Shown in pieces: positions 1,711 to 30,287 of a DNA stretch of 64,000 nt (within the stretch, counting starts at the first letter, position 1; each line of letters opens with the position of its first letter). This DNA is from Actinophytocola xanthii (GTDB lineage Bacteria; Actinomycetota; Actinomycetes; Mycobacteriales; Pseudonocardiaceae). The notes below the pieces were generated by a model. The model searched no databases and had not been told where the DNA came from. It worked only from the letters and a program-made list of their open reading frames with translations. The stretch lies in contig NZ_MSIE01000058.1 of NCBI RefSeq assembly GCF_001921205.1, positions 1 to 64,000 of the forward strand. Reading direction: 5' to 3'. Made by a program: the position numbers and the translations under genes.

Positions 1711-2337
1711 TCAGCGCATCAGGCCGACGGCCGCTGTCGCGATCTCGGCGACCGTGCCGCACAACTGTGGCTGCGGCTGGACGGGGCGGGTCCCGCTCTT
1801 CGGCGTGCCGTAGGAGACATACAGCATCTGGCCGTCGTGGACGTCCACCACGGCGATGCACGTGTCCGGGTTGCGCGGGGTGAGCACGGTCATCGGGTAG
1901 CCGGCGGCCACCCCGTCGGTCTTCGCCGTGACGTTGGCGGAGTCGACATAGGACGGCGCGTCCCGGTTGGTGACCGCGACGGCCAGCATCGAGGCGTTGG
2001 TGTCGATCCCGCTGGCCGAGCAGTCGAGCGAGCCGGGGAACAACAGGGACCGTCCGCCCAACGGCGGCCGGTCGTCGTCGAGCCCGAACTTCCGGCGGGG
2101 TAGCGCGGCGACCACCTGGCAGATGTCCACCTGGGAGAGGTTGATCGGGGCGGGCCGCTGGACCGACGGTCGCGTTGTGGACGGTGCGCCGGTCGAGGGG
2201 GCCGGGGACGAGGTGCTCACCTCGGATGTGACGGACGTCTCAGCCGCGACCGGAAAGCCAGGAGCGGGACTCGAGCACCCCACGAGCACGAGCAGACAGG
2301 CGCCGGCCAGCGCCCGCCGCAGCTTGTGGATCCCCAT
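1711..2337 (-). CDS. DUF3558 family lipoprotein
   Basis: A 208-aa protein with a lipoprotein signal: basic start (MGIHKLRR), hydrophobic stretch, and a lipobox ending LVGC at about residue 24. A Ser/Thr/Pro linker leads into a DUF3558-type domain with a conserved DICQVV-like start and paired cysteines (DICQ, LDCS, DTCI, QLCG). DUF3558 proteins are common in Pseudonocardiaceae and mycobacteria and are often found beside EspG/PPE genes, as here and again at 33.9-34.5 kb. It is probably anchored outside the membrane. An in-frame GTG/ATG at 2364 exists, but the start at 2337 puts the signal peptide at the N-terminus. Confidence 0.8.
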   Translation of the reverse strand: MGIHKLRRALAGACLLVLVGCSSPAPGFPVAAETSVTSEVSTSSPAPSTGAPSTTRPSVQRPAPINLSQVDICQVVAALPRRKFGLDDDRPPLGGRSLLFPGSLDCSASGIDTNASMLAVAVTNRDAPSYVDSANVTAKTDGVAAGYPMTVLTPRNPDTCIAVVDVHDGQMLYVSYGTPKSGTRPVQPQPQLCGTVAEIATAAVGLMR

Positions 2338-2379
2338 GCCCGCCCACCCTAGCCGCCGGGGCACGTTGCCGGGCAGCGC

Positions 2380-4455
2380 TCAGACCAGCCACCGCACGAT
2401 CTCCTCCGGCGGGCCCGGCTTGGCGTAGAGCCAGCCCTGCGCGCTGTCGCAGCCGATGTCGCTCAGGCGCTCCGCCTGGTCGCGGGTCTCCACTCCCTCG
2501 GCGATGACACCGAGCCCGAGCGTGTGGGCCAGCGAGACGAGGGCACGCACGATCTGGGCGTCGACCGAGTCCGGCTCGTCGGCCCGCAGCCCCACCACGA
2601 AGGACCCCGCGATCTTCAGGGCGTGCACGGGCAGGTGTCGGAGGTAGGCGAGGTTCGAGTAGCCCGTGCCGAAGTCGTCGATCGCCACGCACACGCCGAG
2701 GTCGACGAGCTCGCGTAGCGCGTCGAGCGGTTCACCGGTCGTGCCCATGATCGCACTCTCGGTGAGTTCCAGCTGCAGGCTCGTCGGCGGCAGGCCCGCC
2801 TCGCGCAGGATCCGGGCGATGTCCTCGACCAGGCCCGGCTCCTCGACCTGGCGCGCGGCCAGGTTCACGCTGACCACCGGCGCGACCCCACCGAGCGCGG
2901 CCCACTCCGCGGCCTGGGCACACGCCTTGGCCAGGACGGACCGTCCGAGCTGGACGATCAGGCCGGTCTCCTCGGCGAGCCCGATGAACCGGTCCGGGCC
3001 GAGGCGGCCGAACTCCGGGTGGGCCCACCGCACCAGAGCCTCGACCCCGGTCAGCGTGCCCTCGGGTAGTCGCACGATGGGCTGGTACTCCACATAGAAC
3101 TCGTCGCGCTCGAGCGCGGCCGGCATCGCCGCGGAGAGCGCGATCCTGGCGACCTCCCGAGCGTTGCGCTCCGCGTCGTAACAGGCCCAGCGGTTCTTCC
3201 CGTCGGCCTTCGCCCAGTGCAGGGTCACGTCCGCGTCGCGCATGGTGTCCGCCGGGGTGGACGTCGACACGGCGCGCTCGACGATGCCGACACTGGCCGA
3301 GACGGCGAGCCGGTGCCCGCCGACCCGGACCGGCTCCGCCACCGCCGCGAGCACCCGCTCGGCGAGCGCGACCAGCTCCGACACCCCGTCGGTCTGCTCG
3401 ACGAGCAGGGCGAACTCGTCGCCGCCGACCCGGGCCAGCAGCCGGTTGGGCGCGGTGACCAGACCGTAGAGCCGGTCGGCGATCTCGATCAGCAGCTGGT
3501 CGCCGATCACGTGGCCGAGCGTGTCGTTGATGGCCTTGAAGCCGTCGAGGTCGACGTAGCACAGCCCGATCCGCTGGGCCGTCCGCCCGAACGCCGCCTC
3601 CAGTCGTTCGGTGAACAGTGCCCGGTTGCCCAACCGGGTCAGCGGGTCGTGGTTGGCCTGGTGGCGCAGGCGCTCGGACAGCACGTGCCGCTCGGTGTTG
3701 TCCTCGACCATGCCGACCAGCAGCTGCGGTTCGCCGCCCTCGTCGCGCACGAGCGAGACGGTGACGCTCGCCCACAACGCCGAGCCGTCCCGCCGGCGGA
3801 ACCGCCGCTCGATCCGGTAGTGGTCGCGCCGGCCGGCCACCATCTCGTTGAAGTAGCGGCGCAGCTCCGGCGGGTCGTCCTCGTGCAGGAACTCGGCCAC
3901 GTTGCGGCCGCGCACCCGGTCCGGTGCGAGGCCGAGCATGGCCGCGAAGGCGGCGTTGACCTCGACCAGGCGGCCGGAGGTGTCGGTGATGCCGATGCCG
4001 ATCGCGGCTGCCGAGAACACGGCGTTGAACCGCGCCTCGCTCCGCCGGTCCGACTCGACCGCGTCGCCGCCCTGCTCATCCCCCTGGACGGCCCGGACGA
4101 ACCCGCGGGCGAGCGCGGCCTGCACGTCGGCCAGCCGGGGCGACCCGGGCAGCGCGTCGGCGAGGAACCGGATCGTGGCGGCGAGCACGTCGGGCGTGCC
4201 GAGACCGGCGTCGACGAGCTCCGCGGCGCCCCGCTCGACGGGAATGATCGAAAACGGCTCCGCGGTCGCGGCGGTCAGCACGACGTCAAGGAATTCACCG
4301 GCACGCTCGCGGAATGCCGCCACCTCCGTCGGTGCGACTCCGCTTCCGAGCGCGTGGGCCCACGACACCGCGAGCACATCGCGGCGAGACCCTGTCGCGC
4401 CTGCCACGGGCACACCTTTCGGCTTCGAGTTCTCCGAGGATAAGCCCACCTTCAC
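2380..4455 (-). CDS. PAS-GGDEF-EAL cyclic-di-GMP regulator
   Basis: A 691-aa soluble protein without membrane segments: a helical N-terminal region (about 1-140), a PAS domain (about 145-260), a GGDEF domain with intact GGDEF, and an EAL domain. The EAL domain keeps the expected catalytic residues (EAL, N in NLAAR, ELTES, DDFGTG, the Lys of LKI, EGVE, QGW). Two departures: no RxxD inhibitory site five residues before GGDEF, and LKIA where most EAL proteins have LKID. It may both make and degrade c-di-GMP. The start is GTG at 4455; a GTG at 4407 behind AAAGG is an equally credible start. It is transcribed divergently from the lysozyme gene. Confidence 0.9.
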   Translation of the reverse strand: MKVGLSSENSKPKGVPVAGATGSRRDVLAVSWAHALGSGVAPTEVAAFRERAGEFLDVVLTAATAEPFSIIPVERGAAELVDAGLGTPDVLAATIRFLADALPGSPRLADVQAALARGFVRAVQGDEQGGDAVESDRRSEARFNAVFSAAAIGIGITDTSGRLVEVNAAFAAMLGLAPDRVRGRNVAEFLHEDDPPELRRYFNEMVAGRRDHYRIERRFRRRDGSALWASVTVSLVRDEGGEPQLLVGMVEDNTERHVLSERLRHQANHDPLTRLGNRALFTERLEAAFGRTAQRIGLCYVDLDGFKAINDTLGHVIGDQLLIEIADRLYGLVTAPNRLLARVGGDEFALLVEQTDGVSELVALAERVLAAVAEPVRVGGHRLAVSASVGIVERAVSTSTPADTMRDADVTLHWAKADGKNRWACYDAERNAREVARIALSAAMPAALERDEFYVEYQPIVRLPEGTLTGVEALVRWAHPEFGRLGPDRFIGLAEETGLIVQLGRSVLAKACAQAAEWAALGGVAPVVSVNLAARQVEEPGLVEDIARILREAGLPPTSLQLELTESAIMGTTGEPLDALRELVDLGVCVAIDDFGTGYSNLAYLRHLPVHALKIAGSFVVGLRADEPDSVDAQIVRALVSLAHTLGLGVIAEGVETRDQAERLSDIGCDSAQGWLYAKPGPPEEIVRWLV

Positions 4456-19808: not shown

Positions 19809-21242
19809 CTACAGGATGGCCGCGGGGGAATAGGCCGCCGCGTCACCGAAGCGGCTGACCACCTCGCCGACCCGCTTCACCACCGCGGCGACCTGCGCCC
19901 CGGCCACCCCGGTGAACGAGAGCCGGTCGGCCAGCAGGCCCTCGAGCGCGGCTCGGTCCAGCGGGATGCGCTCGTCCGCGGCCAGCCGGTCGAGCAGGTC
20001 GTTGCGCTCGGTCCCCTGCTCGCGCATGGCCAGCGCGACCGCGACCGCGTGCTCCTTGATCGCCTCGTGCGCGGTCTCCCGGCCGACGCCGGTCTGCACC
20101 GAGGCCATCAGCACCTTCGTCGTGGCCAGGAAGGGCAGGTACCGGTCGAGCTCGCGGGCGATCACCGCCGGGTACGCGCCGAAGGAGTCCAGGATGGTCA
20201 GGAACGTCTCGAACAGGCCGTCGAGCGCGAAGAACGCGTCCGGCAACGCGACCCGGCGCACGACCGAGCAGGACACGTCGCCCTCGTTCCACTGGTCGCC
20301 CGCGAGCTCGGCGACCATCGAGGCGTAGCCGCGCAGGATCACCGCGAACCCGTTGACCCGCTCGCTGGAGCGGGTGTTCATCTTGTGCGGCATCGCCGAC
20401 GAGCCGACCTGGCCGGGGCGGAAGCCCTCGGTCGCCAGCTCGTGGCCCACCATCAGCCTGATCGTGGTGGCCAGGCTGGACGGCGCCGCGGCCAGCTGGA
20501 CGAGGGTGGAGACCACGTCGTAGTCCAGCGAGCGCGGGTACACCTGGCCGACCGAGTCGAACACCGTGGTGAAGCCGAGGTACTCGGCGATCCGCTGCTG
20601 GAAGGTGTCCAACCGGGACGGGTCGCCGGCGAACAGGTCGAGCATGTCCTGGCCGGTGCCGACCGGGCCCTGGATGCCGCGCAGCGGGTACCGCTCGATC
20701 AGGCCCTCCAGCCTGGCGAAGGCGACCAGCAGCTCCTCCGCGGCCGAGGCGAAGCGCTTGCCGAGCGTCGTGGCCTGCGCCGCGACGTTGTGCGAGCGGC
20801 CGGCCAGCACCAGGTCCGCGTGCTCCGCGGCCAGCGCGGCCAACCGGGCGAGCACGGCGACGGCGCGGTCCCGCACGAGCACCAGCGAGTCGCGGAGCTG
20901 TAGCTGCTCGACGTTCTCGGTGAGGTCGCGCGAGGTCATGCCCTTGTGCACCTGCTCGTGCCCGGCCAGCGCGTTGAACTCCTCGATCCTGGCCTTCACG
21001 TCGTGCAACGTGACCCGCTCCCGGGCCGCGATCGACTCGAGGTCCACCCGGTCGACCACCCGTTCGTAGTCGGCCAGCACCTGCTCGTCGACGCCGACCC
21101 CGAGGGCCGCCTGGGCCCGCAGCACCGCAAGCCACAGCCGCCGCTCCAGGACGATCTTGTGCTCGGGCGACCAGAGCGTGGCGAGCTCCGCGGAGGCGTA
21201 GCGACCGGCGAGCACGTTCGGGATGCTGGGCTTGGCTGTCAC
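19809..21242 (-). CDS. purB: Adenylosuccinate lyase PurB
   Basis: A 477-aa member of the fumarase/aspartase superfamily with the signature SSAMPHKMNTRSSERV, TSRDLTENVEQ and GRSHNVAAQATTLGKR. It catalyses two steps of purine synthesis (SAICAR to AICAR and adenylosuccinate to AMP). The start is GTG 21242. Only 12 bp separate that start from the edge of a 119-bp inverted-repeat element (21255-21373), so the element forms nearly all of its leader. MOSC, SAM hydrolase and DUF2334 genes follow closely. Confidence 0.96.
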   Translation of the reverse strand: MTAKPSIPNVLAGRYASAELATLWSPEHKIVLERRLWLAVLRAQAALGVGVDEQVLADYERVVDRVDLESIAARERVTLHDVKARIEEFNALAGHEQVHKGMTSRDLTENVEQLQLRDSLVLVRDRAVAVLARLAALAAEHADLVLAGRSHNVAAQATTLGKRFASAAEELLVAFARLEGLIERYPLRGIQGPVGTGQDMLDLFAGDPSRLDTFQQRIAEYLGFTTVFDSVGQVYPRSLDYDVVSTLVQLAAAPSSLATTIRLMVGHELATEGFRPGQVGSSAMPHKMNTRSSERVNGFAVILRGYASMVAELAGDQWNEGDVSCSVVRRVALPDAFFALDGLFETFLTILDSFGAYPAVIARELDRYLPFLATTKVLMASVQTGVGRETAHEAIKEHAVAVALAMREQGTERNDLLDRLAADERIPLDRAALEGLLADRLSFTGVAGAQVAAVVKRVGEVVSRFGDAAAYSPAAIL

Positions 21243-21254
21243 ATCTGCCGAGCC

Positions 21255-21373
21255 TAGGGCGCGTCCGCACAGTCCCGGTCGATGGGCTTCGTGATCCAGG
21301 GCTTGTCCAACAACGCCGCCAGCGGCGGGCTGGGCGCGAAGACCGCGACCGCGGGCTGTGCGGACGCGCCCTA
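21255..21373. mobile_element. MITE-like element, copy 1 (short form) in the purB leader
   Basis: The ends are perfect inverted repeats (TAGGGCGCGTCCGCACAG and its complement), bounded by TA at both sides, as in a TA target duplication of IS630/Tc1-type elements. It is 119 bp long, with no transposase. The TA-G at its right end is the TAG stop of the 240-aa protein gene at 21371; removing the element restores TAG there, followed after 11 bp by the purB GTG. Its interior matches copy 2 (28104-28269, opposite orientation) except for a 47-bp gap. In RNA the ends would pair into a long hairpin. Confidence 0.75.
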
Positions 21374-22093
21374 ACCAGGCCCGTTGTCCTCGGATCGCAG
21401 CACGGGGTCGGTGGCGATGGCGATCAGCGCCTTCAGCCCGACGCCACCAGTGGCGGCGGCCTGGATGGTGACCCGGCCGTCGCCCCAGCGCACGAGCTGC
21501 CGGCCGGTGGCCCGGTAGATGCGCAGCCGCCCGCCGTCCGCCCACTCCTTGTCGCCAACCAGCTTCCCATCGACCGGCGCACCGGGGCGCAGGGCGGCGA
21601 GCAGGAGGAGGTCGCCGCCGGGCAGCCGGTAGACCGGGCAGTCGGTGTCCCGGTCCCGTGGCAGCGGCCTGAGATCGGCTCCCGGCAGGTGGGTGGAAAC
21701 GACCTTCGACCAGAGGCCGGCCGACCGGCGCACGCAGTCCGCCGCCGGTGGGCCGCCGCCCACCTCGCCGTCCGGTGCGGTCGTGGGCGCCACGGTGGCC
21801 GGCAGCGAACTGGTCGATCGCGAATTGGTCGATGGTGAATTGGTCGATGCCGAACCGGTCGGAACGGGTGTGGATGTGGCGGCCGCGTTCCGGTCGCCGG
21901 GCGGCAGCCGCGGCCCGTCGCGTAGGGCACCGACGACCATCGTCACCGCCGCGGTGAGCAGCACGGCGAGCGTGGTGGCGAGCACCGAGCGCCGCTGCCG
22001 GTCGACCGCGGCGGCCCGGGCGACCAGGTCGTCCAGGTCGAGCACCAGCCGCGGCTCCTCCAGGCGGAGCTCGCGCAGCCGGTCCTCGATCAC
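21371..22093 (-). CDS. Single-span membrane protein, third gene of a sigma-factor module
   Basis: A 240-aa protein. A short N-terminal cytoplasmic part (RLRELRLEEPRLVLDLDDLVARA) resembles the starts of the two neighbouring regulator-type proteins. One membrane span follows (about 38-57), then a Ser/Thr-rich linker and an extracytoplasmic domain with two cysteines (DCVRR, DCPVY). GTG 22093 lies 3 bp behind the stop of the preceding gene. The TAG stop is formed by the edge of the MITE-like element. A sensory or anti-sigma-like role is inferred from position only. Confidence 0.65.
   Translation of the reverse strand: MIEDRLRELRLEEPRLVLDLDDLVARAAAVDRQRRSVLATTLAVLLTAAVTMVVGALRDGPRLPPGDRNAAATSTPVPTGSASTNSPSTNSRSTSSLPATVAPTTAPDGEVGGGPPAADCVRRSAGLWSKVVSTHLPGADLRPLPRDRDTDCPVYRLPGGDLLLLAALRPGAPVDGKLVGDKEWADGGRLRIYRATGRQLVRWGDGRVTIQAAATGGVGLKALIAIATDPVLRSEDNGPG
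21807..21866. repeat. 15-bp direct repeat inside the linker of the membrane protein
   Basis: Three full copies of GAA(C/T)TGGTCGAT followed by three variable bases, plus a diverged fourth, run head to tail. In the gene's frame they encode an STNS-type linker. Confidence 0.7.
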
Positions 22094-22096
22094 GGC

Positions 22097-22903
22097 CTAC
22101 AGCCCGAGGCCCGGGTTGCCGGCGAGCTTCGCCAACTGCTCCACGCTGACCGGCATCGGCAGGACGGTGCTGCGGGTCGCGCCCCGGCCGGTGGGGTCGT
22201 AGTTGTAGCCGACGACCGACACGGCCGAGCCGTCCTGGCGGAGGCTGTACACGGTCACGATCCGCAGGGTGGGGTCGGCCGGGTCGACGCCCTCGTCGAC
22301 GGTGAACACCGTGCGCGACTCGTTGAGCCACTCGCAGCGCTTCGCGTTGGTCGGGCACAGCTGCTCCACGTCGGTCGCGCCGGGGGTGAACGCGTTCACC
22401 CCGAGAGCGAAGCGCTCACCGGCGAGGGTGTAGGCCGCGAAGGTAGTCAGGTAGTCCTGCCCGTCCTCGACCTGGCCCGTCGCCTCGCCGCCGAACGGCT
22501 GGATGACCACGTCGACGGCACCGGGAAGGACCTCACGCAGCGCGTCCTCCAGCTCGGCCTGCATCTGCCGGCCCCGCCGCCGGAGTTGCTCGGCCGTGTA
22601 CTCCCGCGCCGCCTCGGACGCGGGCGGCGTGGACGGCCGCTCGGTGGCACCGGGCACGGGCGAGCTCGCCACCGGGCGGTTGCCCGGGGTGAGGTCGCCC
22701 TGCTCGCGGGAGACGCCCAGCACGACCGGCACCGCGACCGCGGCGACCGCGACGGCGACCGTCGCCAGGCTCGCCGACACGAGCGCGCGCCGGCGTCGAG
22801 CCTCCCGGCGCGCGGTGGCGACCAGCGCGTCGGGGTCGAAGTCGAGCGGTGGCTCGTCCGCCACCGCGCTCCGCAGGCCCTCACGAACGTCCCGCTCGGT
22901 CAT
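22097..22903 (-). CDS. Membrane-bound regulator encoded with SigE-family factor (probable anti-sigma)
   Basis: A 268-aa protein: a cytoplasmic N-terminus (LRSAVADEPPLDFDPDALVATARREA), one span (about 38-59), a Pro/Ser linker and an extracytoplasmic domain with two cysteines (QLCP, KRCE). ATG 22903 overlaps the sigma-factor stop by four bases. Its N-terminus matches the protein encoded behind the second sigma factor (LRDAVADAPPPSFDHQDV), so both pairs are paralogous. No zinc-finger HxxxCxxC motif is present. An anti-sigma role is inferred. Confidence 0.7.
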   Translation of the reverse strand: MTERDVREGLRSAVADEPPLDFDPDALVATARREARRRRALVSASLATVAVAVAAVAVPVVLGVSREQGDLTPGNRPVASSPVPGATERPSTPPASEAAREYTAEQLRRRGRQMQAELEDALREVLPGAVDVVIQPFGGEATGQVEDGQDYLTTFAAYTLAGERFALGVNAFTPGATDVEQLCPTNAKRCEWLNESRTVFTVDEGVDPADPTLRIVTVYSLRQDGSAVSVVGYNYDPTGRGATRSTVLPMPVSVEQLAKLAGNPGLGL

Positions 22904-23451
22904 CTCGCGACCCTCCCCGCAGTCGGCCCCAGCTCCTCCTCGGCGGACAACCGGGCGACCGAGGCCCGCAGCGTGTCCAGCGCGCGGGCCGTCTGGCTCT
23001 TCACCGTTCCCTCCGAGCACCCCATCACCGCCGCCGTCTCGGCCACCGACAGCTCGTCGAAGTACCGCAGCACCAGCACCGCGCGCTGGCGCGGCGGCAG
23101 GCGCAGCAGACCGCGGTGCACGACGTCCCGCACCCACATCCGGTGCACGCCCTCGGCCGGGTCGTGCCGGGGGTCGGCCACCTCCGGCACCGCGGCCTCG
23201 GTGTGCTCCGAGCGCCGCCACGCCCGCCGCTTCTCGTCCAGCCAGGTACGCAGCAGCACGGTGCGGCCGTAGTTGGCCAGGCTCTCGTCGTGCTGCACCC
23301 GCGACCAGGACCGGTAGACCTTGATCAGGCTCTGCTGCATCAGGTCCTCGGCCAGGTGCCAGTCGCCGCAGAACAGGAACGCCGAGCGGCGCAGCGAGGC
23401 GGCGTAGCGGGTGGCGAACCGGCGAAAGCTGTCCTCGTCGGTCTGTCGCAT
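22900..23451 (-). CDS. SigE-family ECF RNA polymerase sigma factor
   Basis: A 183-aa protein with regions 2 and 4 only: region 2 (SAFLFCGDWHLAEDLMQQSLIKVYRSW) and region 4 with PPRQRAVLVLRYFDELSVAETA and a helix-turn-helix GCSEGTVKSQTARAL. It belongs to the actinobacterial SigE (TIGR02983-like) group, whose members usually sit with a single-span partner, as here. AAGGGAG precedes ATG 23451. It probably drives its own three-gene operon. Confidence 0.9.
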   Translation of the reverse strand: MRQTDEDSFRRFATRYAASLRRSAFLFCGDWHLAEDLMQQSLIKVYRSWSRVQHDESLANYGRTVLLRTWLDEKRRAWRRSEHTEAAVPEVADPRHDPAEGVHRMWVRDVVHRGLLRLPPRQRAVLVLRYFDELSVAETAAVMGCSEGTVKSQTARALDTLRASVARLSAEEELGPTAGRVAR

Positions 23452-23501
23452 GGGGCTCCCTTCGCACCCTTACCCACGACGTCGTCGCGGACGGGGTTGC
23501 A

Positions 23502-24089
23502 TCAGGGCGCGAGGAACTCGTGCAACATCCGACGGGCCACGCCGCGCGGGTCGGTGTTGATCTCGATCAGCGCGTTGACCACCGCGCCGTCCACGATCGC
23601 GATCACCTGCTCGACCCGGCGCGCGTCGAACTCCATCCCGGAACGGGTGAACACCTCGAGCAGCAGCCCGCGCAGCTCCGCACCGAGGACGTGCATCAGC
23701 GGGCGCAGGTACGGGCGGCGGAACGTGGCGACCAACCGCTCGTAGCGCAGCAGTACCAGCTCGGCGTCGCGCTCCCCGGCCGGCGGACCGAGCAGCTGGT
23801 CGAGCACGAGGTCGACGACGGCGTCCACGCCGCGCGGCTGGGTGGGCAGGGCGGCGAGCAGCGCGCTGCCGCGAACCAGCTCCGCCCGACCGTGGTGCTC
23901 CACGGCGGCGGCGACCAGCTCGTCCAGCGAACCGAAGTAGTAGGTGGTGGACGACAGCGGCAGCCCGGCACGTTCGGCGACCGCTCGGTGGCGGACCGCG
24001 TCGAAGCCGCGTTCGACCAGCAGCTCCGCGGCGGCCTCGACCAGTGCCTGCCGGCGGCGCTCGCCCTTGGGTGTGCTCGCGGCCGTCAT
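23502..24089 (-). CDS. TetR/AcrR-family transcriptional regulator
   Basis: A 195-aa protein with an N-terminal TetR helix-turn-helix (ALVEAAAELLVERGFDAVRHRAVAERAGLPLSSTTYYFGSLDEL broken here only by reading) and a C-terminal ligand domain of the TetR_C_6-like type. ATG 24089 has no strong ribosome site. It lies between the two sigma-factor modules on the same strand, with gaps of 45 and 50 bp; the target is unknown. Confidence 0.88.
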   Translation of the reverse strand: MTAASTPKGERRRQALVEAAAELLVERGFDAVRHRAVAERAGLPLSSTTYYFGSLDELVAAAVEHHGRAELVRGSALLAALPTQPRGVDAVVDLVLDQLLGPPAGERDAELVLLRYERLVATFRRPYLRPLMHVLGAELRGLLLEVFTRSGMEFDARRVEQVIAIVDGAVVNALIEINTDPRGVARRMLHEFLAP

Positions 24090-24134
24090 CCGGACAGATC
24101 GTGCCAGCTCAGGGTTCGGCCGCAGAACACAGGC

Positions 24135-24875
24135 TCAGCTCCGGGCGGCGACCGCGCCGGCCAGCCTGCCGAGCTCGTCGGCGTAGGGCGGCTCCTGCCC
24201 GGGCACCGCGGGTTCGCTGAGCACCACGACCGTCCACCCGTCCTTGGTCGTGGCGGTGGCCTGCCGCCCGCGATCGGCGGCAACCGGGATCTGAATCTCG
24301 GTCGCCCGGACCAGGAGGATTGAGAGCGTGCCGCCCGGGACGTGGAACGCGGCGCCCGACGCGTTGGGCGGGCAGCCCGAGGGCAGCGGCACCGCGGCCT
24401 CGGGCTGGAGCTTTGCGGCGGCCGGGAGCTCGCCCGCGAGGGCAGCAGCGAGCTCCCGGTCCGCCTGTTCGCACCCACTAGAGGTGCTCCCGGGCCCAGT
24501 GGGCCCGGCGTCCCCTTCCGAAGTGCGTCCCTGCTTACGCGACTCCGGCGGGGAGTTTTCCTGACGCTCCGTCTTAGGAGCGACGTCTTGTTCCCTGTTC
24601 GGTAACTCGTATGGAGCAGCGTTTCCGTTACCGGATGCAGCCTCACTATCTGCCGCAGTCGGCTGATCGGCCGAACGCGCCCCTGTCCACAATGCCACGC
24701 CCAGCGCAGTCGCGCCCGCCAACAGGGCTAGTGCGAGGGCGGAACCGGACAGGATGCCGTTGCGCCTGCGCTGCTGCCGCTTCGACTCGCGCGCCACGTC
24801 CTGGTGGTCGAACGACGGGGGCGGAGCGTCGGCGACCGCGTCACGCAGCAGTTCGCTCAGCTTGTGCTCGTCCAT
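24135..24875 (-). CDS. Single-span membrane partner of the second SigE-family factor
   Basis: A 246-aa protein: cytoplasmic N-terminus (LSELLRDAVADAPPPSFDHQDVARES), one span (about 38-60), a long Asn/Glu/Ser/Thr/Pro-rich linker, and an extracytoplasmic domain with two cysteines (GCEQ, SGCPP). A strong GGGAGGG precedes ATG 24875. It follows the sigma factor by 16 bp. The linker is much less GC-rich than its surroundings (many AAG/GAA/TCT-type codons), hinting at relaxed or different history. An anti-sigma role is inferred. Confidence 0.68.
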   Translation of the reverse strand: MDEHKLSELLRDAVADAPPPSFDHQDVARESKRQQRRRNGILSGSALALALLAGATALGVALWTGARSADQPTAADSEAASGNGNAAPYELPNREQDVAPKTERQENSPPESRKQGRTSEGDAGPTGPGSTSSGCEQADRELAAALAGELPAAAKLQPEAAVPLPSGCPPNASGAAFHVPGGTLSILLVRATEIQIPVAADRGRQATATTKDGWTVVVLSEPAVPGQEPPYADELGRLAGAVAARS

Positions 24876-24891
24876 CGACGTCCCTCCCTTC

Positions 24892-25410
24892 TCACGTCGC
24901 CGACCTCAGGTCGTCCAGCGAGTCCCCGAGCGCCTCCCGCAGTGCGGCCAGGCCTCGAGCCGTCTGGCTCTTCACGGTGCCCTCGGAGCACTTGAGCGCC
25001 TCGGCGGTCGCCGTGACGTCCAGTCCCTCGAGGAACCGCAGCACGAGCACCGCCCGTTGCCGGGGCGGTACCCGCCGCAGACCGTCGAGCAGCGTCGCCC
25101 GGTTGGCCACGGTGGTGTCGACCCCGCCGTCGAGCTGCGCCTGCTCGGGCAGCTCGTCGACGAAGCGCTCCCGCCGCCACGGCCGCCGCGACTCGTCGAT
25201 CACCGCACGCACCAGCGTGCGGCGCACGTACGCGTCCAGCGCACCACGGTCCCTGACCTTGCGCCATCTCCGGTGCAGCGCGACGAACGCCGTCTGGGCG
25301 AGGTCGTCCGCGCGGTGCCAGTCACCGCACAGCAGGTACGCGGATCTCCGCACGGCGTCCTGTCTCGCCGTGAAGTACTCCGCGAATGCCTCCTCGTCGC
25401 GCTGTTCCAC
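24892..25410 (-). CDS. SigE-family ECF RNA polymerase sigma factor (second)
   Basis: A 172-aa sigma factor with region 2 (SAYLLCGDWHRADDLAQTAFVALHRRW) and region 4 (PPRQRAVLVLRFLEGLDVTATAEALKCSEGTVKSQTARGL). GTG 25410 with GGAGAAG 8 nt upstream gives the family length; an ATG at 25485 would add 25 atypical residues. It is a paralogue of the factor at 22900-23451 (shared CGDWH and CSEGTVKSQTARxL), which suggests a duplicated sigma/partner module. It is divergent from the threonine aldolase gene. Confidence 0.88.
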   Translation of the reverse strand: MEQRDEEAFAEYFTARQDAVRRSAYLLCGDWHRADDLAQTAFVALHRRWRKVRDRGALDAYVRRTLVRAVIDESRRPWRRERFVDELPEQAQLDGGVDTTVANRATLLDGLRRVPPRQRAVLVLRFLEGLDVTATAEALKCSEGTVKSQTARGLAALREALGDSLDDLRSAT

Positions 25411-25570
25411 GCGGACTCTTCTCCGCTCGTCGTCTGCGTCAGGGGGGACGGAATGCGCCCGCTCCACGGTTGCACGGGACCTCACCGAGATCTACGCCAC
25501 CCCCCACACGGGTTAGGACGTCCGAGGTGCCCCTCAGGATGTCCGCACCAGAATGTGGTGTGATCGGATC

Positions 25571-26596
25571 GTGACAAACACTCGGCTGATAGACCTCCGT
25601 TCGGACACCGTCACCAAGCCCGACGACGTGATGCGCGCCGCGATGGCGGGCGCCGAGGTCGGCGACGACGTGCTGGACGGCGATCCGACGATGCGGCGGC
25701 TGGAGGAGCGAGTCGCCGAGCTGCTGGGTGTCGAGGCCGCGCTGTGGGTTCCGAGCGGGTCGATGGGCAACATGATCGCGTTGACCGTGCACCTGCGTCG
25801 CGGGGACCGGTTCCTCGCCCCGCGCGGGGCGCACGTGCTGGAGAACGAGCTGGGCGCGGCGGCCTGGCTGTCCGGTGGCATGCCGCAACCGGTCGAGTGG
25901 GGCGAGCAGCCGGGGCGGATCCCGGTGGAGGCGGTACGGGCGAGCGGTGGCTCCCGGGGGCCCTACCACGCCCTGCGGACGACGCTGCTCTGCCTGGAGA
26001 ACACGCACAACGCCGCCGGCGGCACGGTCACCCCGCCCGACGAGCACGCCAAGCTGGTCGCGACGGCCAAGGACGTCGGGCTGCTGGTGCACCTGGACGG
26101 GGCGCGGCTCTGGCACGCCTCGGTCGCCCTCGAGGTGCCACCGGCGGCGCTGACCGTCGGCGTGGACACCGTCCAGGTGTGCCTGAGCAAGGGCCTGGGC
26201 GCCCCGGTCGGCTCGGTCGTCGCCGGCTCGGCCGCGTTCGTCGAGGAGGCCCGCCGGGTGCGCAAGATGCTGGGCGGCGGGGTCCGCCAGGGCGGCGTAC
26301 TGGCGGCCGCGGGCCTGGTCGCCCTCGACCGCATCCCGACCCTGGCGCTGGACCACGCCAACGCCACGGCGCTGGCCACCGGGCTCGCCGAGCTCGGCTG
26401 GGAGGTCAACCGGCCGGAGACGAACATCGTGCTCGTCGCGACGCCGGACGTCGGGGCGACCCTCGCGGCACTGCGCCGGGTCGACGTGCTGGGCGTGCCC
26501 ATGGGCAACCGCGTCCGTCTCATCGCCCACCGGGACGTGAGCGTCGCCGACATCGCCGAGGTGCTGGACCGGGTGGCCGCCGTCACCACCCGGTGA
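25571..26596 (+). CDS. Low-specificity L-threonine aldolase (PLP enzyme)
   Basis: A 341-aa fold-type I PLP enzyme with the family start DLRSDTVTKP, GDDVLDGDPTMRRLEE, VPSGSMGNM, LENTHNAAGG, HLDGAR and the Schiff-base lysine in CLSKGLGAPVGS. It cleaves L-threonine or allo-threonine to glycine and acetaldehyde. GTG 25571 puts DLRSDT at residue 7, as usual, but no good ribosome site precedes it. It is divergent from the second sigma-factor gene. Confidence 0.9.
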   Translation: MTNTRLIDLRSDTVTKPDDVMRAAMAGAEVGDDVLDGDPTMRRLEERVAELLGVEAALWVPSGSMGNMIALTVHLRRGDRFLAPRGAHVLENELGAAAWLSGGMPQPVEWGEQPGRIPVEAVRASGGSRGPYHALRTTLLCLENTHNAAGGTVTPPDEHAKLVATAKDVGLLVHLDGARLWHASVALEVPPAALTVGVDTVQVCLSKGLGAPVGSVVAGSAAFVEEARRVRKMLGGGVRQGGVLAAAGLVALDRIPTLALDHANATALATGLAELGWEVNRPETNIVLVATPDVGATLAALRRVDVLGVPMGNRVRLIAHRDVSVADIAEVLDRVAAVTTR

Positions 26597-26599
26597 CGC

Positions 26600-26770
26600 T
26601 CACCGGATCTGCTTGCGCTGGGCGCTGCCCTTGACGGCGGCGTAGCCCAGGGCGCCGACGGTGAGCACGGCGGCGACGACGAGCAGGGTGCCGAGCACCT
26701 CGAACACGAAGCCGAGCACCGAGAACGCCACCCAGATGACGATGATCGCGCCGATGATCTTCAACAGCAT
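26600..26770 (-). CDS. Small membrane protein (56 aa)
   Basis: ATG 26770 to a TGA at 26600 gives MLLKIIGAIIVIWVAFSVLG at the N-terminus and a second hydrophobic stretch (LGTLLVVAAVLTVGALGYAA), with a basic tail (QRKQIR): two short spans with the C-terminus inside. GGGAGGG lies upstream. Codon use is typical of the genome. Its stop lies 3 bp from the convergent threonine aldolase stop. Function is unknown. Confidence 0.7.
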   Translation of the reverse strand: MLLKIIGAIIVIWVAFSVLGFVFEVLGTLLVVAAVLTVGALGYAAVKGSAQRKQIR

Positions 26771-26851
26771 CGCGGGTTCACCCTCCCGAGGAACCGGCCG
26801 TGGTGGCCGTTATCTGGTCAACGAACGTCGCACACCAGCTGTTCCACACCT

Positions 26852-26866
26852 CGAGTGTGACACTCG
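26852..26866. terminator. Palindrome CGAGTGT-G-ACACTCG behind the aminotransferase gene
   Basis: Perfect 7-bp arms with one central base, flanked by GTTCC and GGAAC that could extend the stem. It lies 30 bp past the aminotransferase stop and 82 bp ahead of the small membrane gene. It could be a terminator for the former or an operator for the latter. Confidence 0.35.
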
Positions 26867-26895
26867 CGGAACCCGCGCACATCGGGGAAGACCCC

Positions 26896-28056
26896 TCAGG
26901 GGAGCCAGCCCTGCAGCCGCTCCAGCGCCTCGGTGATGTCGGTGGACGGGCCGGCGAAGGAGAACCGGACGAAGTGGCGTCCCTCCTCCGGGTCGAAGTC
27001 GATGCCGGGGACGATGGCCAGACCCGTGTCTGCCAGCAGGCGCTGGCAGAACGACATCGAGTCCGACGTCAGGTGGGCGATGTCCGCATAGATGTAGAAC
27101 GCGCCGTCGGCCGGGGCGAGCTTCGTGACACCCAGCCGGTGCAGCCCGTGGATCAGCGTGTCGCGGTTGGCCTCGTACTGCGCGACGTGCGCGTCGAGCT
27201 CGGGGTAGGCGCCGAACGCCGCGGTGGCGGCGTACTGGGAGAGCACCGGCGGGCAGATGGTGAAGTTGCCGGTCAGGCAGTCGACCGCGCGGTGCAGTCG
27301 CTCGGGCACGAGCAGCCAGCCCAGGCGCCAGCCGGTCATCGCGAAGTACTTCGAGAACGAGTTCACCACGACGGCCTCGCGGGAGAACTGCCAGGCGGAG
27401 GCCGGGTCGGTGGTCCCGTAGTGGATGCCGTGGTAGATCTCGTCGCTGACCAGCTGCACGCCGTGCTCGACGCACCAGCCGGCGATCGCCGCCAGCTCGC
27501 CGGGTGCCAGCATCGTGCCGGTCGGATTGGCCGGGCTGGCGACGACCAGGCCGTCGAGCGGGAGGAGCTCCTCGAGCAGCTCGACGGTCGGCTGGAACCG
27601 GGCCTCCGGACCGCACGGCAGCTCCACGACCTCGCAGTCCAACGCCCCGAGGATGTTGCGGTAGGCCGGGTAACCGGGCCGCGCCAGCGCCACCCGGTCG
27701 CCCGCGTCGAACGCGGCCAGGAACGACAGCAGGAAGCCGCCCGAGGAGCCGGTGGTCACCACGACGTCGTGCGGCTCGACGGACAGGGAGTACCGGCGCT
27801 CGTAGTGCCCGGCGATCGCCTCCCGCAGCTCGGGGATGCCCAGCTGCTCGGTGTAGCCGAGCGGGCCGGCCAGGGCCTCGGCCGCCGCGATCCTGACCCC
27901 CCGCGGCGGCCCGGCGCTGGGCTGCCCGGCGGCCAGCGACACCACGTCCCCCTTCGCCCGCTGCCGGGTGTTGGCCGCGGACAGCACGTCCATGACGTGG
28001 AACGGCGGGACCGCGGACGCGCGCGCGGCGACCTTCATCAGGCGGGCCTGGGACAT
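26896..28056 (-). CDS. Class I/II PLP aminotransferase
   Basis: A 386-aa fold-type I aminotransferase with TTGSSGGFLLSF, ARPGYPAYRNI, SPANPTGT, SDEIYHGI, the Schiff-base lysine in NSFSKYFAMTGWRLGW and the final Arg in FVRFSFAG. Substrate, probably an amino acid with a 2-oxo acid acceptor, is not determinable. ATG 28056 has GGAG 5 nt upstream; the frame runs upstream into the MITE-like element but without support. It lies 47 bp behind that element. Confidence 0.9.
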   Translation of the reverse strand: MSQARLMKVAARASAVPPFHVMDVLSAANTRQRAKGDVVSLAAGQPSAGPPRGVRIAAAEALAGPLGYTEQLGIPELREAIAGHYERRYSLSVEPHDVVVTTGSSGGFLLSFLAAFDAGDRVALARPGYPAYRNILGALDCEVVELPCGPEARFQPTVELLEELLPLDGLVVASPANPTGTMLAPGELAAIAGWCVEHGVQLVSDEIYHGIHYGTTDPASAWQFSREAVVVNSFSKYFAMTGWRLGWLLVPERLHRAVDCLTGNFTICPPVLSQYAATAAFGAYPELDAHVAQYEANRDTLIHGLHRLGVTKLAPADGAFYIYADIAHLTSDSMSFCQRLLADTGLAIVPGIDFDPEEGRHFVRFSFAGPSTDITEALERLQGWLP

Positions 28057-28103
28057 GGTCTCCAGCCTGCCGCCACCGGCGCGCGTCCGCACCCCCACCC
28101 CCC

Positions 28104-28269
28104 TAGGGCACGTCCGCACAGCCCTCGATCGCGGTCTTCGCGCCCAGCCCGTCGCTGGCGGCGTTGTCGGACAGGCCGGGTACGACCCGGTACGAGGCCT
28201 GCCCTCCGCCTTGCCAGCGACGACCTGGATCACGAAGCCCATCGACCGGGACTGTGCGGACGCGCCCTA
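28104..28269. mobile_element. MITE-like element, copy 2 (long form) between MFS and aminotransferase genes
   Basis: 166 bp including TA at each end. The inverted repeats TAGGGC(A/G)CGTCCGCACAG differ at one base. It lies opposite in orientation to copy 1 and carries 47 bp that copy 1 lacks, within which lies a small hairpin (CCGGGT-ACG-ACCCGG, 28176-28190). Its right-hand TA-G is the TAG stop codon of the MFS gene; without the element the stop would still be TAG. It has no open frame of credible size. It separates two genes on the same strand and may end transcription. Confidence 0.75.
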
Positions 28270-29727
28270 CACGCCGACAGCCGCCGGCACTGGCTCGCCC
28301 ACTCCAGCCACGGTTCCGGCCGGGCGGCGCAGCACGGTCAGCGCCAGCACGACAGCGGTCGCGACCATTCCGGCACCCACCCAGAACGCCAGGCGGAACC
28401 CGCTGGCCATGGCCTCGGCCGGCGCTGCGCCCCCGGTCAGCAGGGTGTTCGTCCGTGCGGTGGACAGGGTCGCCAGTACCGCGAGCCCGAGCGCGCCACC
28501 GACCTGCTGGGTGGTGTTCACCAGCCCCGAGGTGAGGCCGGAGTCCTCCACCGTGGCGCCCGACATCGCGAGCGTGGTCATGGCCGGGAAGGCGAGCCCG
28601 CCGCCGATGCCCATCAGGGTCACCGACGGGAACACGTCGGAAAGGTAGTTCCCGTCCACCGGCGCCCTGGTGAACAGGGCCAGCCCGACCAGCACCAGCA
28701 GCAGCGCCCCGACCAGCACGGTCCGCTCGCCGAACCGGGCGTTGAGGCGTGCGGAGGCCCCGAGCGAGAGCGCCCCGATGCCGACCGCGACCGGCAGGAA
28801 CGCCAGGCCGATCTCCAGCGGGTCGTAGCCGAGCACCCGCTCCAGGTAGAGCGCGCCGAGGAAGAACATGCTGATCATGCCGCCGACCAGGAGGACCTGG
28901 ATCAGGTTCGCGCCGGCGACGGTCCGGTTGGCCAGGATCCGCGGCGGCAGCAGCGGGTTGGCGATCCGAGCCTGCCGCAGGCCGAACGCGGCGAGCAGCA
29001 GCAGCGAACCGGCGCCGAACAGCAGGGTGTGCGCCGACGCCCAGCCGTGGTCGGCGGCCTTCACGATCGTGTAGACGCCGATCATCAGCCCGGCGGTGAC
29101 CAGCAGCGCACCGAGCACGTCCGCACCCGCCCGCAGGCCGATGCCGCGCTCGGCGGGCACCACGCGCACCGCGAGCAGGAACGCGACCAGGCCGATGGGG
29201 ACGTTGACGAAGAAGATCCAGTGCCAGCTGATGGCCTCGGTGAGCAGGCCACCGGCGAGCAGACCGATCGAGCCGCCGGCGGCGGCGACGAAGCTGAACA
29301 CGCCGATCGCCCTGGCCTGCTCGCCCTTCTCCGGGAACATCGTGACGATCATGCCGAGGATCACCGCGGCTGCCATGGCGCCGCCGACACCCTGCACGAA
29401 CCGGGCCGCGATCAGCAGCGCCTGGTTCTCGGCGAGCCCGCACAGGAGCGAGGCCACCGTGAACACGACGAGACCGGAGAGGAACATCCGGCGGCGCCCG
29501 AGCAGGTCGCCGGTGCGGCCGGCGAGCAGCAGCAGGCCGCCGAAGGGGATCAGGTAGGCGTTGACGACCCACGCCAGACCGGACTGGGAGAAGCCCAGAT
29601 CGTCCTGGATGGCGGGGAGCGCGACGTTCACGATGGTGCCGTCGAGGATGATCATGAGCATCCCCGCACACAGCACGACGAGGGCGAACCAGCGGGAGTC
29701 CCGACGCGCGCTCGTGTTGTCCGACAT
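28267..29727 (-). CDS. MFS drug exporter, DHA2 (14-span) family
   Basis: A 486-aa polytopic protein with the DHA2 motif C-like LDGTIVNVALPAIQ in span 1, GRTGDLLGRRRMF (motif A) and FVQGVGGAMAAA, giving about 14 spans. It is likely a proton-driven exporter of toxic compounds. ATG 29727 has AGGAGAGG upstream. A MarR regulator gene lies just upstream on the same strand, with an imperfect palindrome between them. The stop codon is formed at the edge of the MITE-like element. Confidence 0.9.
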   Translation of the reverse strand: MSDNTSARRDSRWFALVVLCAGMLMIILDGTIVNVALPAIQDDLGFSQSGLAWVVNAYLIPFGGLLLLAGRTGDLLGRRRMFLSGLVVFTVASLLCGLAENQALLIAARFVQGVGGAMAAAVILGMIVTMFPEKGEQARAIGVFSFVAAAGGSIGLLAGGLLTEAISWHWIFFVNVPIGLVAFLLAVRVVPAERGIGLRAGADVLGALLVTAGLMIGVYTIVKAADHGWASAHTLLFGAGSLLLLAAFGLRQARIANPLLPPRILANRTVAGANLIQVLLVGGMISMFFLGALYLERVLGYDPLEIGLAFLPVAVGIGALSLGASARLNARFGERTVLVGALLLVLVGLALFTRAPVDGNYLSDVFPSVTLMGIGGGLAFPAMTTLAMSGATVEDSGLTSGLVNTTQQVGGALGLAVLATLSTARTNTLLTGGAAPAEAMASGFRLAFWVGAGMVATAVVLALTVLRRPAGTVAGVGEPVPAAVGV

Positions 29728-29769
29728 AACGAAACCTCTCCTGGGTGATGCTTCCAGGAGAGACCGTAA

Positions 29770-29795
29770 CAGATAGTCTGGTTCGAGACGATCTG
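29770..29795. promoter_or_regulatory. Candidate MarR operator ahead of the MFS gene
   Basis: CAGATAGTCT-GGTTCG-AGACGATCTG: 10-bp arms with one mismatch around a 6-bp centre, within the 80-bp gap between marR and MFS. Such AGTCT..AGACT-type dyads are typical of MarR-family sites. Confidence 0.5.
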
Positions 29796-29807
29796 CTGTG
29801 GGATTGC

Positions 29808-30287
29808 CTACAGTCGTCGCCGAGGGGCCCGTTGGCACTGGACAGGGGTGGCGAGACGACCGCTCACGAGGCGGATCAGCCCGCTCACGAAAGCGGACCG
29901 CTCGTCGTCGGGCAGGACAGCGAGCACGTCGGCGTAGACCCCGGCGACGATCTCCTCGGCCTGCCGGACGACCCGGCGGCCCTCGTCGGTGAGCACGATG
30001 ATGCGGGCCCGCCGGTCGGTCGGGGACAACTTCCGCTCGACCAGGCTGGACTTCTCCAACTCGTCGAGCGTGACGACCATCGTGGTCTTGTCCATCCCGC
30101 ACAGGTCGGCCAGCTTGATCTGGGTCCGGTCACCGGGGGTGGCCTTGGCCAGCACGCAGTAGCCGCGGGGGGTGATGCCGAGGTCGGCGAGCCGGGCGGT
30201 CAGCTCGGTCGTGAGCACATGGCTGGCGTGACCGAGGAGGAACGCCAGGTCGACCTCGGCGGCGGCGTCGACGCGAGAGGTGGTCAT
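29808..30287 (-). CDS. MarR-family transcriptional regulator
   Basis: A 159-aa winged-helix protein: ITPRGYCVLAKATPGDRTQIKLADLCGMDKTTMVVTLDELE (read in parts) forms the helix-turn-helix, then the wing ERKLSPTDRRARIIVLTDEG, with the conserved DxRxxxxxLT pattern. It probably represses itself and the MFS exporter downstream until a toxic ligand binds. A 13-bp palindrome ACGGAT-T-ATCCGT (30318-30330) lies about 30 bp upstream of ATG 30287 and may be a second site. Confidence 0.9.
   Translation of the reverse strand: MTTSRVDAAAEVDLAFLLGHASHVLTTELTARLADLGITPRGYCVLAKATPGDRTQIKLADLCGMDKTTMVVTLDELEKSSLVERKLSPTDRRARIIVLTDEGRRVVRQAEEIVAGVYADVLAVLPDDERSAFVSGLIRLVSGRLATPVQCQRAPRRRL

What the first reader, a model, noticed from the sequence alone, without database searches (positions are those of the whole stretch)
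21255..28269. Two-copy MITE-like family with 16-18 bp inverted ends and TA flanks
Copies at 21255-21373 and 28104-28269 share ends TAGGGCGCGTCCGCACAG (perfect in copy 1, one mismatch in copy 2), lie in opposite orientation, carry no transposase and have a TA at each edge. That is the layout of a short non-autonomous element mobilised by an IS630/Tc1-type transposase. I know no named family for it.
Basis: partly seen in the sequence, partly recalled or inferred. Interest (0 to 1): 0.75.

Follow-up and report, generated by a model that had tools for sequence, protein, structure and literature searches.

The report
Mobile hairpin element borrowing transposon ends
The two short repeats belong to a high-copy jumping element without genes, probably moved by a common type of bacterial transposase, and inside it sits a folded hairpin that is kept in distantly related bacteria while the outer ends change, which may be a travelling RNA of unknown job.

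Summary
Both copies are one transposable element, a MITE of about 166 bp with at least 38 near-complete copies in the host genome (probably an Actinophytocola). It inserts mostly at the TA of CTAG. Seventeen of 35 scorable copies sit exactly in a TAG-type stop codon, which the element's own TAG end restores; ordinary CTAG sites lie in stop codons about as often (12 of 31).

The IS630/Tc1 reading is not supported. In the same genome an IS5-family (DUF4096 + DDE_Tnp_1) insertion sequence abuts a member of this MITE family, and their ends agree at 20 of 22 positions on each side. The window copies' own autonomous partner was not found.

The new part is the core: a hairpin of about 110 nt with conserved internal loops, strong compensatory change (covariation score 0.54 against 0.19 shuffled) and strand polarity (191 G-U against 16 A-C cells). 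It occurs in 67 of 150 genomes of the family, in isolates of two phyla (Actinomycetota, Acidobacteriota), and in draft bins labelled as three more, with different ends in different lineages. No Rfam family matched. Best reading: a MITE superfamily carrying a conserved single-strand hairpin, probably RNA. The hairpin's function is inferred, not shown.

The parts
21255..21373 (+). MITE copy 1, 119 bp; lacks 47 bp of the core, including the GGCAAGGCG arm and the tip of the hairpin
   Evidence: DNA fold z -7.79
21255..21272 (+). copy 1 left terminal inverted repeat
   Evidence: exact
21356..21373 (-). copy 1 right terminal inverted repeat; its TA plus G gives the stop codon of the ORF 21371-22093(-)
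28104..28269 (-). MITE copy 2, 166 bp, complete
28104..28121 (+). copy 2 terminal inverted repeat with one mismatch
28252..28269 (-). copy 2 terminal inverted repeat, exact; its TA plus G gives the stop codon of the MFS transporter ORF 28267-30102(-)
28130..28240 (-). conserved hairpin core, 111 nt, the strand carrying GGCAAGGCG
   Evidence: fold -76.3 kcal/mol on this strand, -63.6 on the other

Best explanation
The window holds two copies of a non-autonomous DNA transposon (MITE). Shown by sequence: inverted ends, TA at both edges mostly inside CTAG, tens of copies, CTAG without an element in relatives, ends of a sister copy matching an IS5-family element of the same genome, and a core that is a covarying, strand-polar hairpin kept far beyond the genus while the ends change. 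Inferred: an IS5-family (IS427-type) transposase acting in trans recognises the ends and inserts the element at the TA of a CTAG, duplicating TA. CTAG is scarce in genes and often lies in TAG stop codons; because each end begins TAG, such a stop is rebuilt and the insertion costs little. The core persists because one strand folds into a specific hairpin, most likely an RNA made by read-through or from a promoter not identified here, that serves the element's own maintenance or movement. The ends change by drift or exchange as IS5-type partners change.
For: Copies and ends. Target: CTAG in 26 of 35 restored sites; 17 stop codon, 17 intergenic, 1 in a called gene. Element-free CCTAG in 3 of 5 same-genus genomes (one-sided). 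Recent movement: 8 of 8 extracted G002 copies differ at one position and all have CTAG at both borders. Partner: 977-bp IS5-family element abutting a 166-bp sister MITE, ends 20 of 22 on each side. Hairpin: 25 of 38 pairs with double changes, covariation 0.542 against 0.189 shuffled and at most 0.112 slid; cross-phylum set 24 of 30 pairs, 0.583 against 0.166. Polarity: G-U 191 and A-C 16 in 38 of 38 rows; 89 and 14, 25 of 27 rows. Spread: 67 of 150 family genomes; Geothrix isolates and several bins.
Against: No autonomous element with the window subfamily's own ends was found. G019, with 19 model matches, has no DUF4096 match, nor do 5 of 10 more distant genomes; PF01609 matched 3 of 6 of the genomes tried, and no matching ends were seen on the three loci tested. 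Transposases were sought only by these two models, which favours IS5. No expression data. Two Sideroxydans bins have one copy each with little or reversed polarity. Streptomyces L219 also folds slightly better on the other strand. No evident orientation bias relative to host genes (by eye).
Confidence: 0.65

Rival explanations
1. An ordinary IS5-type MITE whose palindromic core has no function. Template switching at replication forks repairs imperfect palindromes toward symmetry, which mimics covariation, and the family is merely old and horizontally spread.
For: Palindromic MITEs are common (recalled). Sideroxydans L228 has an almost perfectly paired hairpin (29 Watson-Crick of 30 pairs, no G-U), as symmetry repair would give.
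Against: Symmetry repair should remove G-U and A-C alike, yet G-U is 191 and A-C 16. The asymmetric loops stay imperfect: GGCAAGGCG and CAACGC are kept in most of the 38 cores, which were found by BLAST and not by motif.
Confidence: 0.2
2. The selected molecule is a single-stranded DNA hairpin, formed at the replication fork or during transposition, not an RNA.
For: One-strand polarity and loop conservation fit ssDNA as well as RNA. No promoter or transcript was shown.
Against: Frequent G-U (G-T in DNA) pairs are better tolerated in RNA (general knowledge). Orientation along the single-contig genome G021 is mixed (14 copies, by eye), with no sign of a lagging-strand bias, though replication arms were not mapped.
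Confidence: 0.22
3. One reading: a MITE moved by an IS630/Tc1-type transposase.
For: TA duplication also fits that family, and CTAG preference is known for IS630 (recalled). The window subfamily's own partner was not found. IS630 transposases were not searched for.
Against: In this genome an IS5-family element shares both ends with a sister copy. IS5-family elements in related genomes have similar ends, for example L359 and L361. The sampling by PF13340 favours IS5.
Confidence: 0.06

Closest known systems
IS5-family MITEs such as BrickBuilt of Porphyromonas gingivalis (PMC4596501, passages seen)
   Same: Gene-less element whose terminal inverted repeats match full-length IS5-family elements of the same genome; predicted to form long stem-loops
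   Different: BrickBuilt's stem-loops come from internal direct repeats. Here a non-repetitive hairpin with conserved loops covaries across genera and phyla while the ends change
IS5 family, IS427 group (autonomous elements; PMC3281130, passages seen)
   Same: 2-bp target duplication in most listed IS427 elements; lengths there 832-865 bp; similar terminal repeat size
   Different: The window element has no transposase and carries the hairpin, which was not found inside the IS elements tested
IS630/Tc1-mariner MITEs (recalled)
   Same: TA at both edges
   Different: The best partner found is IS5-family; IS630 transposases were not searched
Correia, BOX, RUP and ERIC-type interspersed palindromes (recalled)
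   Same: Short, many copies, mostly intergenic, strong hairpins
   Different: As recalled these are confined to narrow lineages; this core spans phyla and shows strand-polar covariation

Membership tests
MITE | Short, no transposase, terminal inverted repeats | tested here: met
   119 and 166 bp; ends exact or with one mismatch
MITE | Many dispersed copies at different sites with short target duplication | tested here: met
   38 copies over 160 bp; TA at edges, CTAG in 26 of 35 restored sites
MITE | Element-free target in relatives | tested here: met
   CCTAG in 3 of 5 same-genus genomes at copy 1, alignable on the purB side only; copy 2 uninformative
IS5/IS427-mobilised element | Ends match an IS5-family element | tested here: met
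   For a sister copy in the same genome, 20 of 22 at each end; for the window's own end type no exact partner found
IS5/IS427-mobilised element | Moved in trans by that transposase | not testable with these tools
   Needs a transposition assay
IS630/Tc1-mobilised element | Ends match an IS630-family element | not tested
   DDE_3 transposases were not searched
Functional structured RNA | Covariation beyond shuffled and slid controls | tested here: met
   0 of 500 shuffles reach any of the five measures
Functional structured RNA | Strand polarity of wobble pairs | tested here: met
   191 G-U and 16 A-C; 89 and 14
Functional structured RNA | Transcribed | not testable with these tools
   No expression data
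Known Rfam family | Match to an Rfam model | tested here: not met
   No match over the element at E up to 5 nor over the hairpins of the seven loci

The most novel reading that the evidence does not exclude
A cross-phylum superfamily of mobile structured RNAs: one hairpin, marked by the loops GGCAAGGCG and G(A/G)CAACGC, is carried between bacterial phyla inside MITEs that keep taking on the ends of local IS5-type transposons, the hairpin itself being the conserved replicating entity.
Probability: 0.45. Interest if true: 0.85.

Novelty: new variant of a known kind. Interest (0 to 1): 0.68.

Why it matters
MITEs are usually read as genome-specific remains of one insertion sequence. Here the inside is more widely shared than the ends and shows strand-polar covariation, the mark of a folded single strand under selection. 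That makes three questions testable: whether a gene-less element lives on a structured RNA, how it changes transposase partners, and how it reached distant phyla. The stop-restoring insertion also shows how such an element can reach high copy number in compact GC-rich genomes at little cost.

Tried and rejected
Full-length IS with the window copies' own ends in the host: none seen with the 18-base end at up to 2 mismatches, with a 13-base end at 1 mismatch (first 100 of 229 places listed) or in 20 fetched regions. The genome is a 204-contig draft and several contigs end in a copy.

Hairpin inside the IS5 elements: model R1 on 30 IS loci found the abutting MITE in L198 (E 1.5e-20) and three weak hits (E 0.0085, 0.71, 0.78) that I did not examine.

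Stop-codon targeting as a special mechanism: not needed. 17 of 35 insertions and 12 of 31 ordinary CTAG sites fall in stop codons. This used a home-made gene caller; 2 of 37 copies were dropped for short flanks, and 20 of the 21 background sequences had been fetched because they hold end-like strings.

Orientation relative to genes: no evident bias (by eye). Orientation along G021: mixed (by eye). Phage origin: 0 exact matches to the core pattern in viral contigs and no BLAST match in phages. Copy-2 empty site: alignment uninformative. Rfam: none.

Literature: ten full-text searches. Going by the titles and abstract starts listed, none describes this element. Passages of PMC2516522, PMC4596501 and PMC3281130 were seen. 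Only open-licence PMC papers are held.

Full report
OBSERVATION. The 18-bp end is present four times in the window against a shuffled mean of 0.27. Copy 1 (119 bp) is copy 2 (166 bp) with 47 bp missing from the middle, which removes the 5' arm and the tip of the hairpin described below. Folded alone, copy 1 is still strongly palindromic (DNA, z -7.79).

COPY NUMBER AND HOST. The draft genome (8.34 Mb, 204 contigs) has 90 matches to the end with up to 2 mismatches; the reversed control pattern has none. After dropping matches under 80% identity and duplicates, 58 matching pieces were extracted, 38 of them longer than 160 bp. The 37 of at least 163 bp are 87.3-100% identical to copy 2, mean 95.6%. 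This is a lower bound, since one search scored 40 of 185 candidates. The host is probably an Actinophytocola: contigs of the same-genus genomes G002 and G004 have the same lengths as records of A. oryzae DSM 45499 and A. algeriensis CECT 8960.

TARGET. With one TA restored in a script, the sites read CTAG in 26 of 35 copies, TTAG in 3, CTAA in 2 and something else in 4 (2 of 37 dropped for short flanks). At copy 1's site three of five same-genus genomes read CCTAG without the element and two read CTTA. Only the side next to purB (name recalled from the translation) can be aligned, so this is a one-sided empty site. In G002 eight of eight extracted copies differ at a single position and all have CTAG at both borders, so movement there was recent. 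Seventeen of 35 copies sit exactly in a stop codon, 17 between genes and one inside a called gene; for 31 ordinary CTAG sites in 165.8 kb the figures are 12, 16 and 3. Where CTAG occurs therefore suffices to explain the stop-codon sites. Because each end begins TAG, the stop is rebuilt; an ORF next to each window copy ends in such a TAG.

PARTNER. L355, from the host genome, holds a 977-bp element (2081-3057) with DUF4096 and DDE_Tnp_1 frames, named IS5 family transposase by NCBIfam NF033580. Whether its two overlapping frames make an active enzyme is not shown. It abuts a 166-bp sister MITE (3056-3221). Their ends agree at 20 of 22 positions on each side, and one of the two positions that distinguish the two IS ends also distinguishes the two MITE ends. 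Elements with related ends were seen in G013 (L359, 945 bp), G004 (L361, 987 bp) and G021 (L365, 937 bp). Against this: no autonomous element with the window subfamily's own ends was found; G019 and 5 of 10 more distant genomes have no DUF4096 match; and of six such genomes three have a DDE_Tnp_1 match, with no matching ends seen on the three loci tested. IS630 transposases were not searched.

THE CORE. A DNA search found relatives in 15 of 41 genomes, own included. In G002, G004, G009, G013, G019 and G021 the matches lie mainly in the middle of the element, and the ends differ between genomes. For 38 cores found by BLAST and not by motif (54 were at hand, and 16 mostly near-duplicate ones were left out), RNAalifold gives 38 pairs, 25 with double compensatory changes. 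The covariation score is 0.542 against 0.189 shuffled and at most 0.112 with partners slid. A wider set of 27 gives 24 of 30 pairs and 0.583 against 0.166. Most of its rows came from a motif pattern, so its loop letters and the pairs next to them are conserved by construction, but the outer arms are not. G-U cells outnumber A-C cells 191 to 16, in 38 of 38 rows, and 89 to 14, in 25 of 27 rows with one tie and one reversed. The GGCAAGGCG strand folds better than its complement in 73 of 75 distinct motif sequences; many of the 75 come from a few genera, and L219 and L241 are the exceptions. A double-stranded cruciform, or symmetry repair of palindromes, should not favour one strand, whereas a one-strand RNA or ssDNA should. 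The asymmetric loops, with GA/GA replaced by CC/GG in some lineages, point the same way. No Rfam family matched.

DISTRIBUTION. Model R1 matches 67 of 150 genomes of the family and 27 of 46 genera, own included, with 25 candidates scored per genome, and 9 of 296 genomes of the phylum, own included. The records include many Pseudonocardiaceae, Streptomyces, Nocardioides, Stackebrandtia and Actinocatenispora, and outside Actinomycetota the isolates Geothrix campi, Geothrix sp. SG200 and Geothrix paludis (Acidobacteriota). Draft bins are labelled Holophagaceae, Acidobacteria, Acetobacteraceae, Sideroxydans, Planctomycetota and Cyanobacteria. The three phyla seen only in bins (Pseudomonadota, Planctomycetota, Cyanobacteriota) could be binning errors. 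My hand estimate is about 0.2 chance matches to the pattern in the whole collection (not a tool result). Of 15 such genomes searched with model R2, 13 have 3 to 50 matches and the two Sideroxydans bins have one each.

ENDS ELSEWHERE. In 17 of 34 rows ends matching at 12-14 of 14 positions lie 159-168 bp apart; the other rows gave none, inner, shorter or implausible ends. Five distinct Acidobacteriota places have ends 273-274 bp apart. In the Sideroxydans bins the hairpin lies between genes that I read as iscS and iscU (names recalled from translations), on the strand opposite to them, with little or reversed polarity.

ROUTE. There was no match in viral contigs or phage records. Eight Streptomyces plasmid records matched over 36-45% of the query, and the two fetched match model R2 over its full length. 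Plasmids are thus a possible vehicle.

MECHANISM. Most likely an IS5/IS427-type transposase recognises the ends in trans and inserts the element at the TA of CTAG. The hairpin acts as a single strand, most likely RNA. Three of 37 host copies clearly combine the ends of two subfamilies, which suggests that ends can be exchanged. What the hairpin binds is unknown. My best guess is a role in the element's own maintenance or movement, because no orientation bias relative to host genes is evident (by eye).

VERDICT. A real, recently mobile MITE family with a corrected likely transposase, and an unexpected conserved strand-polar hairpin in its middle. The kind (MITE) is known; the variant looks new. 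Passages read describe IS5-type MITEs with matching ends (PMC4596501) and mostly 2-bp duplications in IS427 elements (PMC3281130). Ten searches listed nothing that by title or abstract start describes this hairpin.

Noticed in passing
L228:5917-6029 and L241:3839-3948: Two Sideroxydans bins carry one copy of the hairpin between genes read as iscS and iscU, with different arms that still pair: possibly a domesticated copy.
   Followed up: partly
L095:8676-8895 (G000:C133): Two copies of the element directly in tandem, the second cut short, consistent with insertion at the CTAG formed at an element's edge.
   Followed up: no
L265 and its genome G465: A Planctomycetota bin has 50 model matches, many at contig ends, so the element breaks the assembly.
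   Followed up: no
L159:772-884 and L160:770-879 (G020): Both conserved loops are changed together (GGCGGTGCGGG opposite CCGCCCGTGCC in L159), a natural variant of the hairpin.
   Followed up: no
L356:1429-2366 and L358:1588-2443: Further IS5-type elements of the host with other ends (AGAGGGCATCTGATC, TAGTGATCAGTTCA); the second resembles ends of the Actinocatenispora MITE.
   Followed up: no
window 28081-28092: An extra GCGCGTCCGCAC, like the inner part of the element's end, lies 11 bp before copy 2.
   Followed up: no
window 21242-21255: Copy 1 sits 12 bp upstream of the GTG read as the purB start, so it may have displaced that gene's upstream region.
   Followed up: partly
host genome, 165.8 kb sampled: CTAG is very scarce: 31 sites outside the elements, 12 of them stop codons.
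   Followed up: partly
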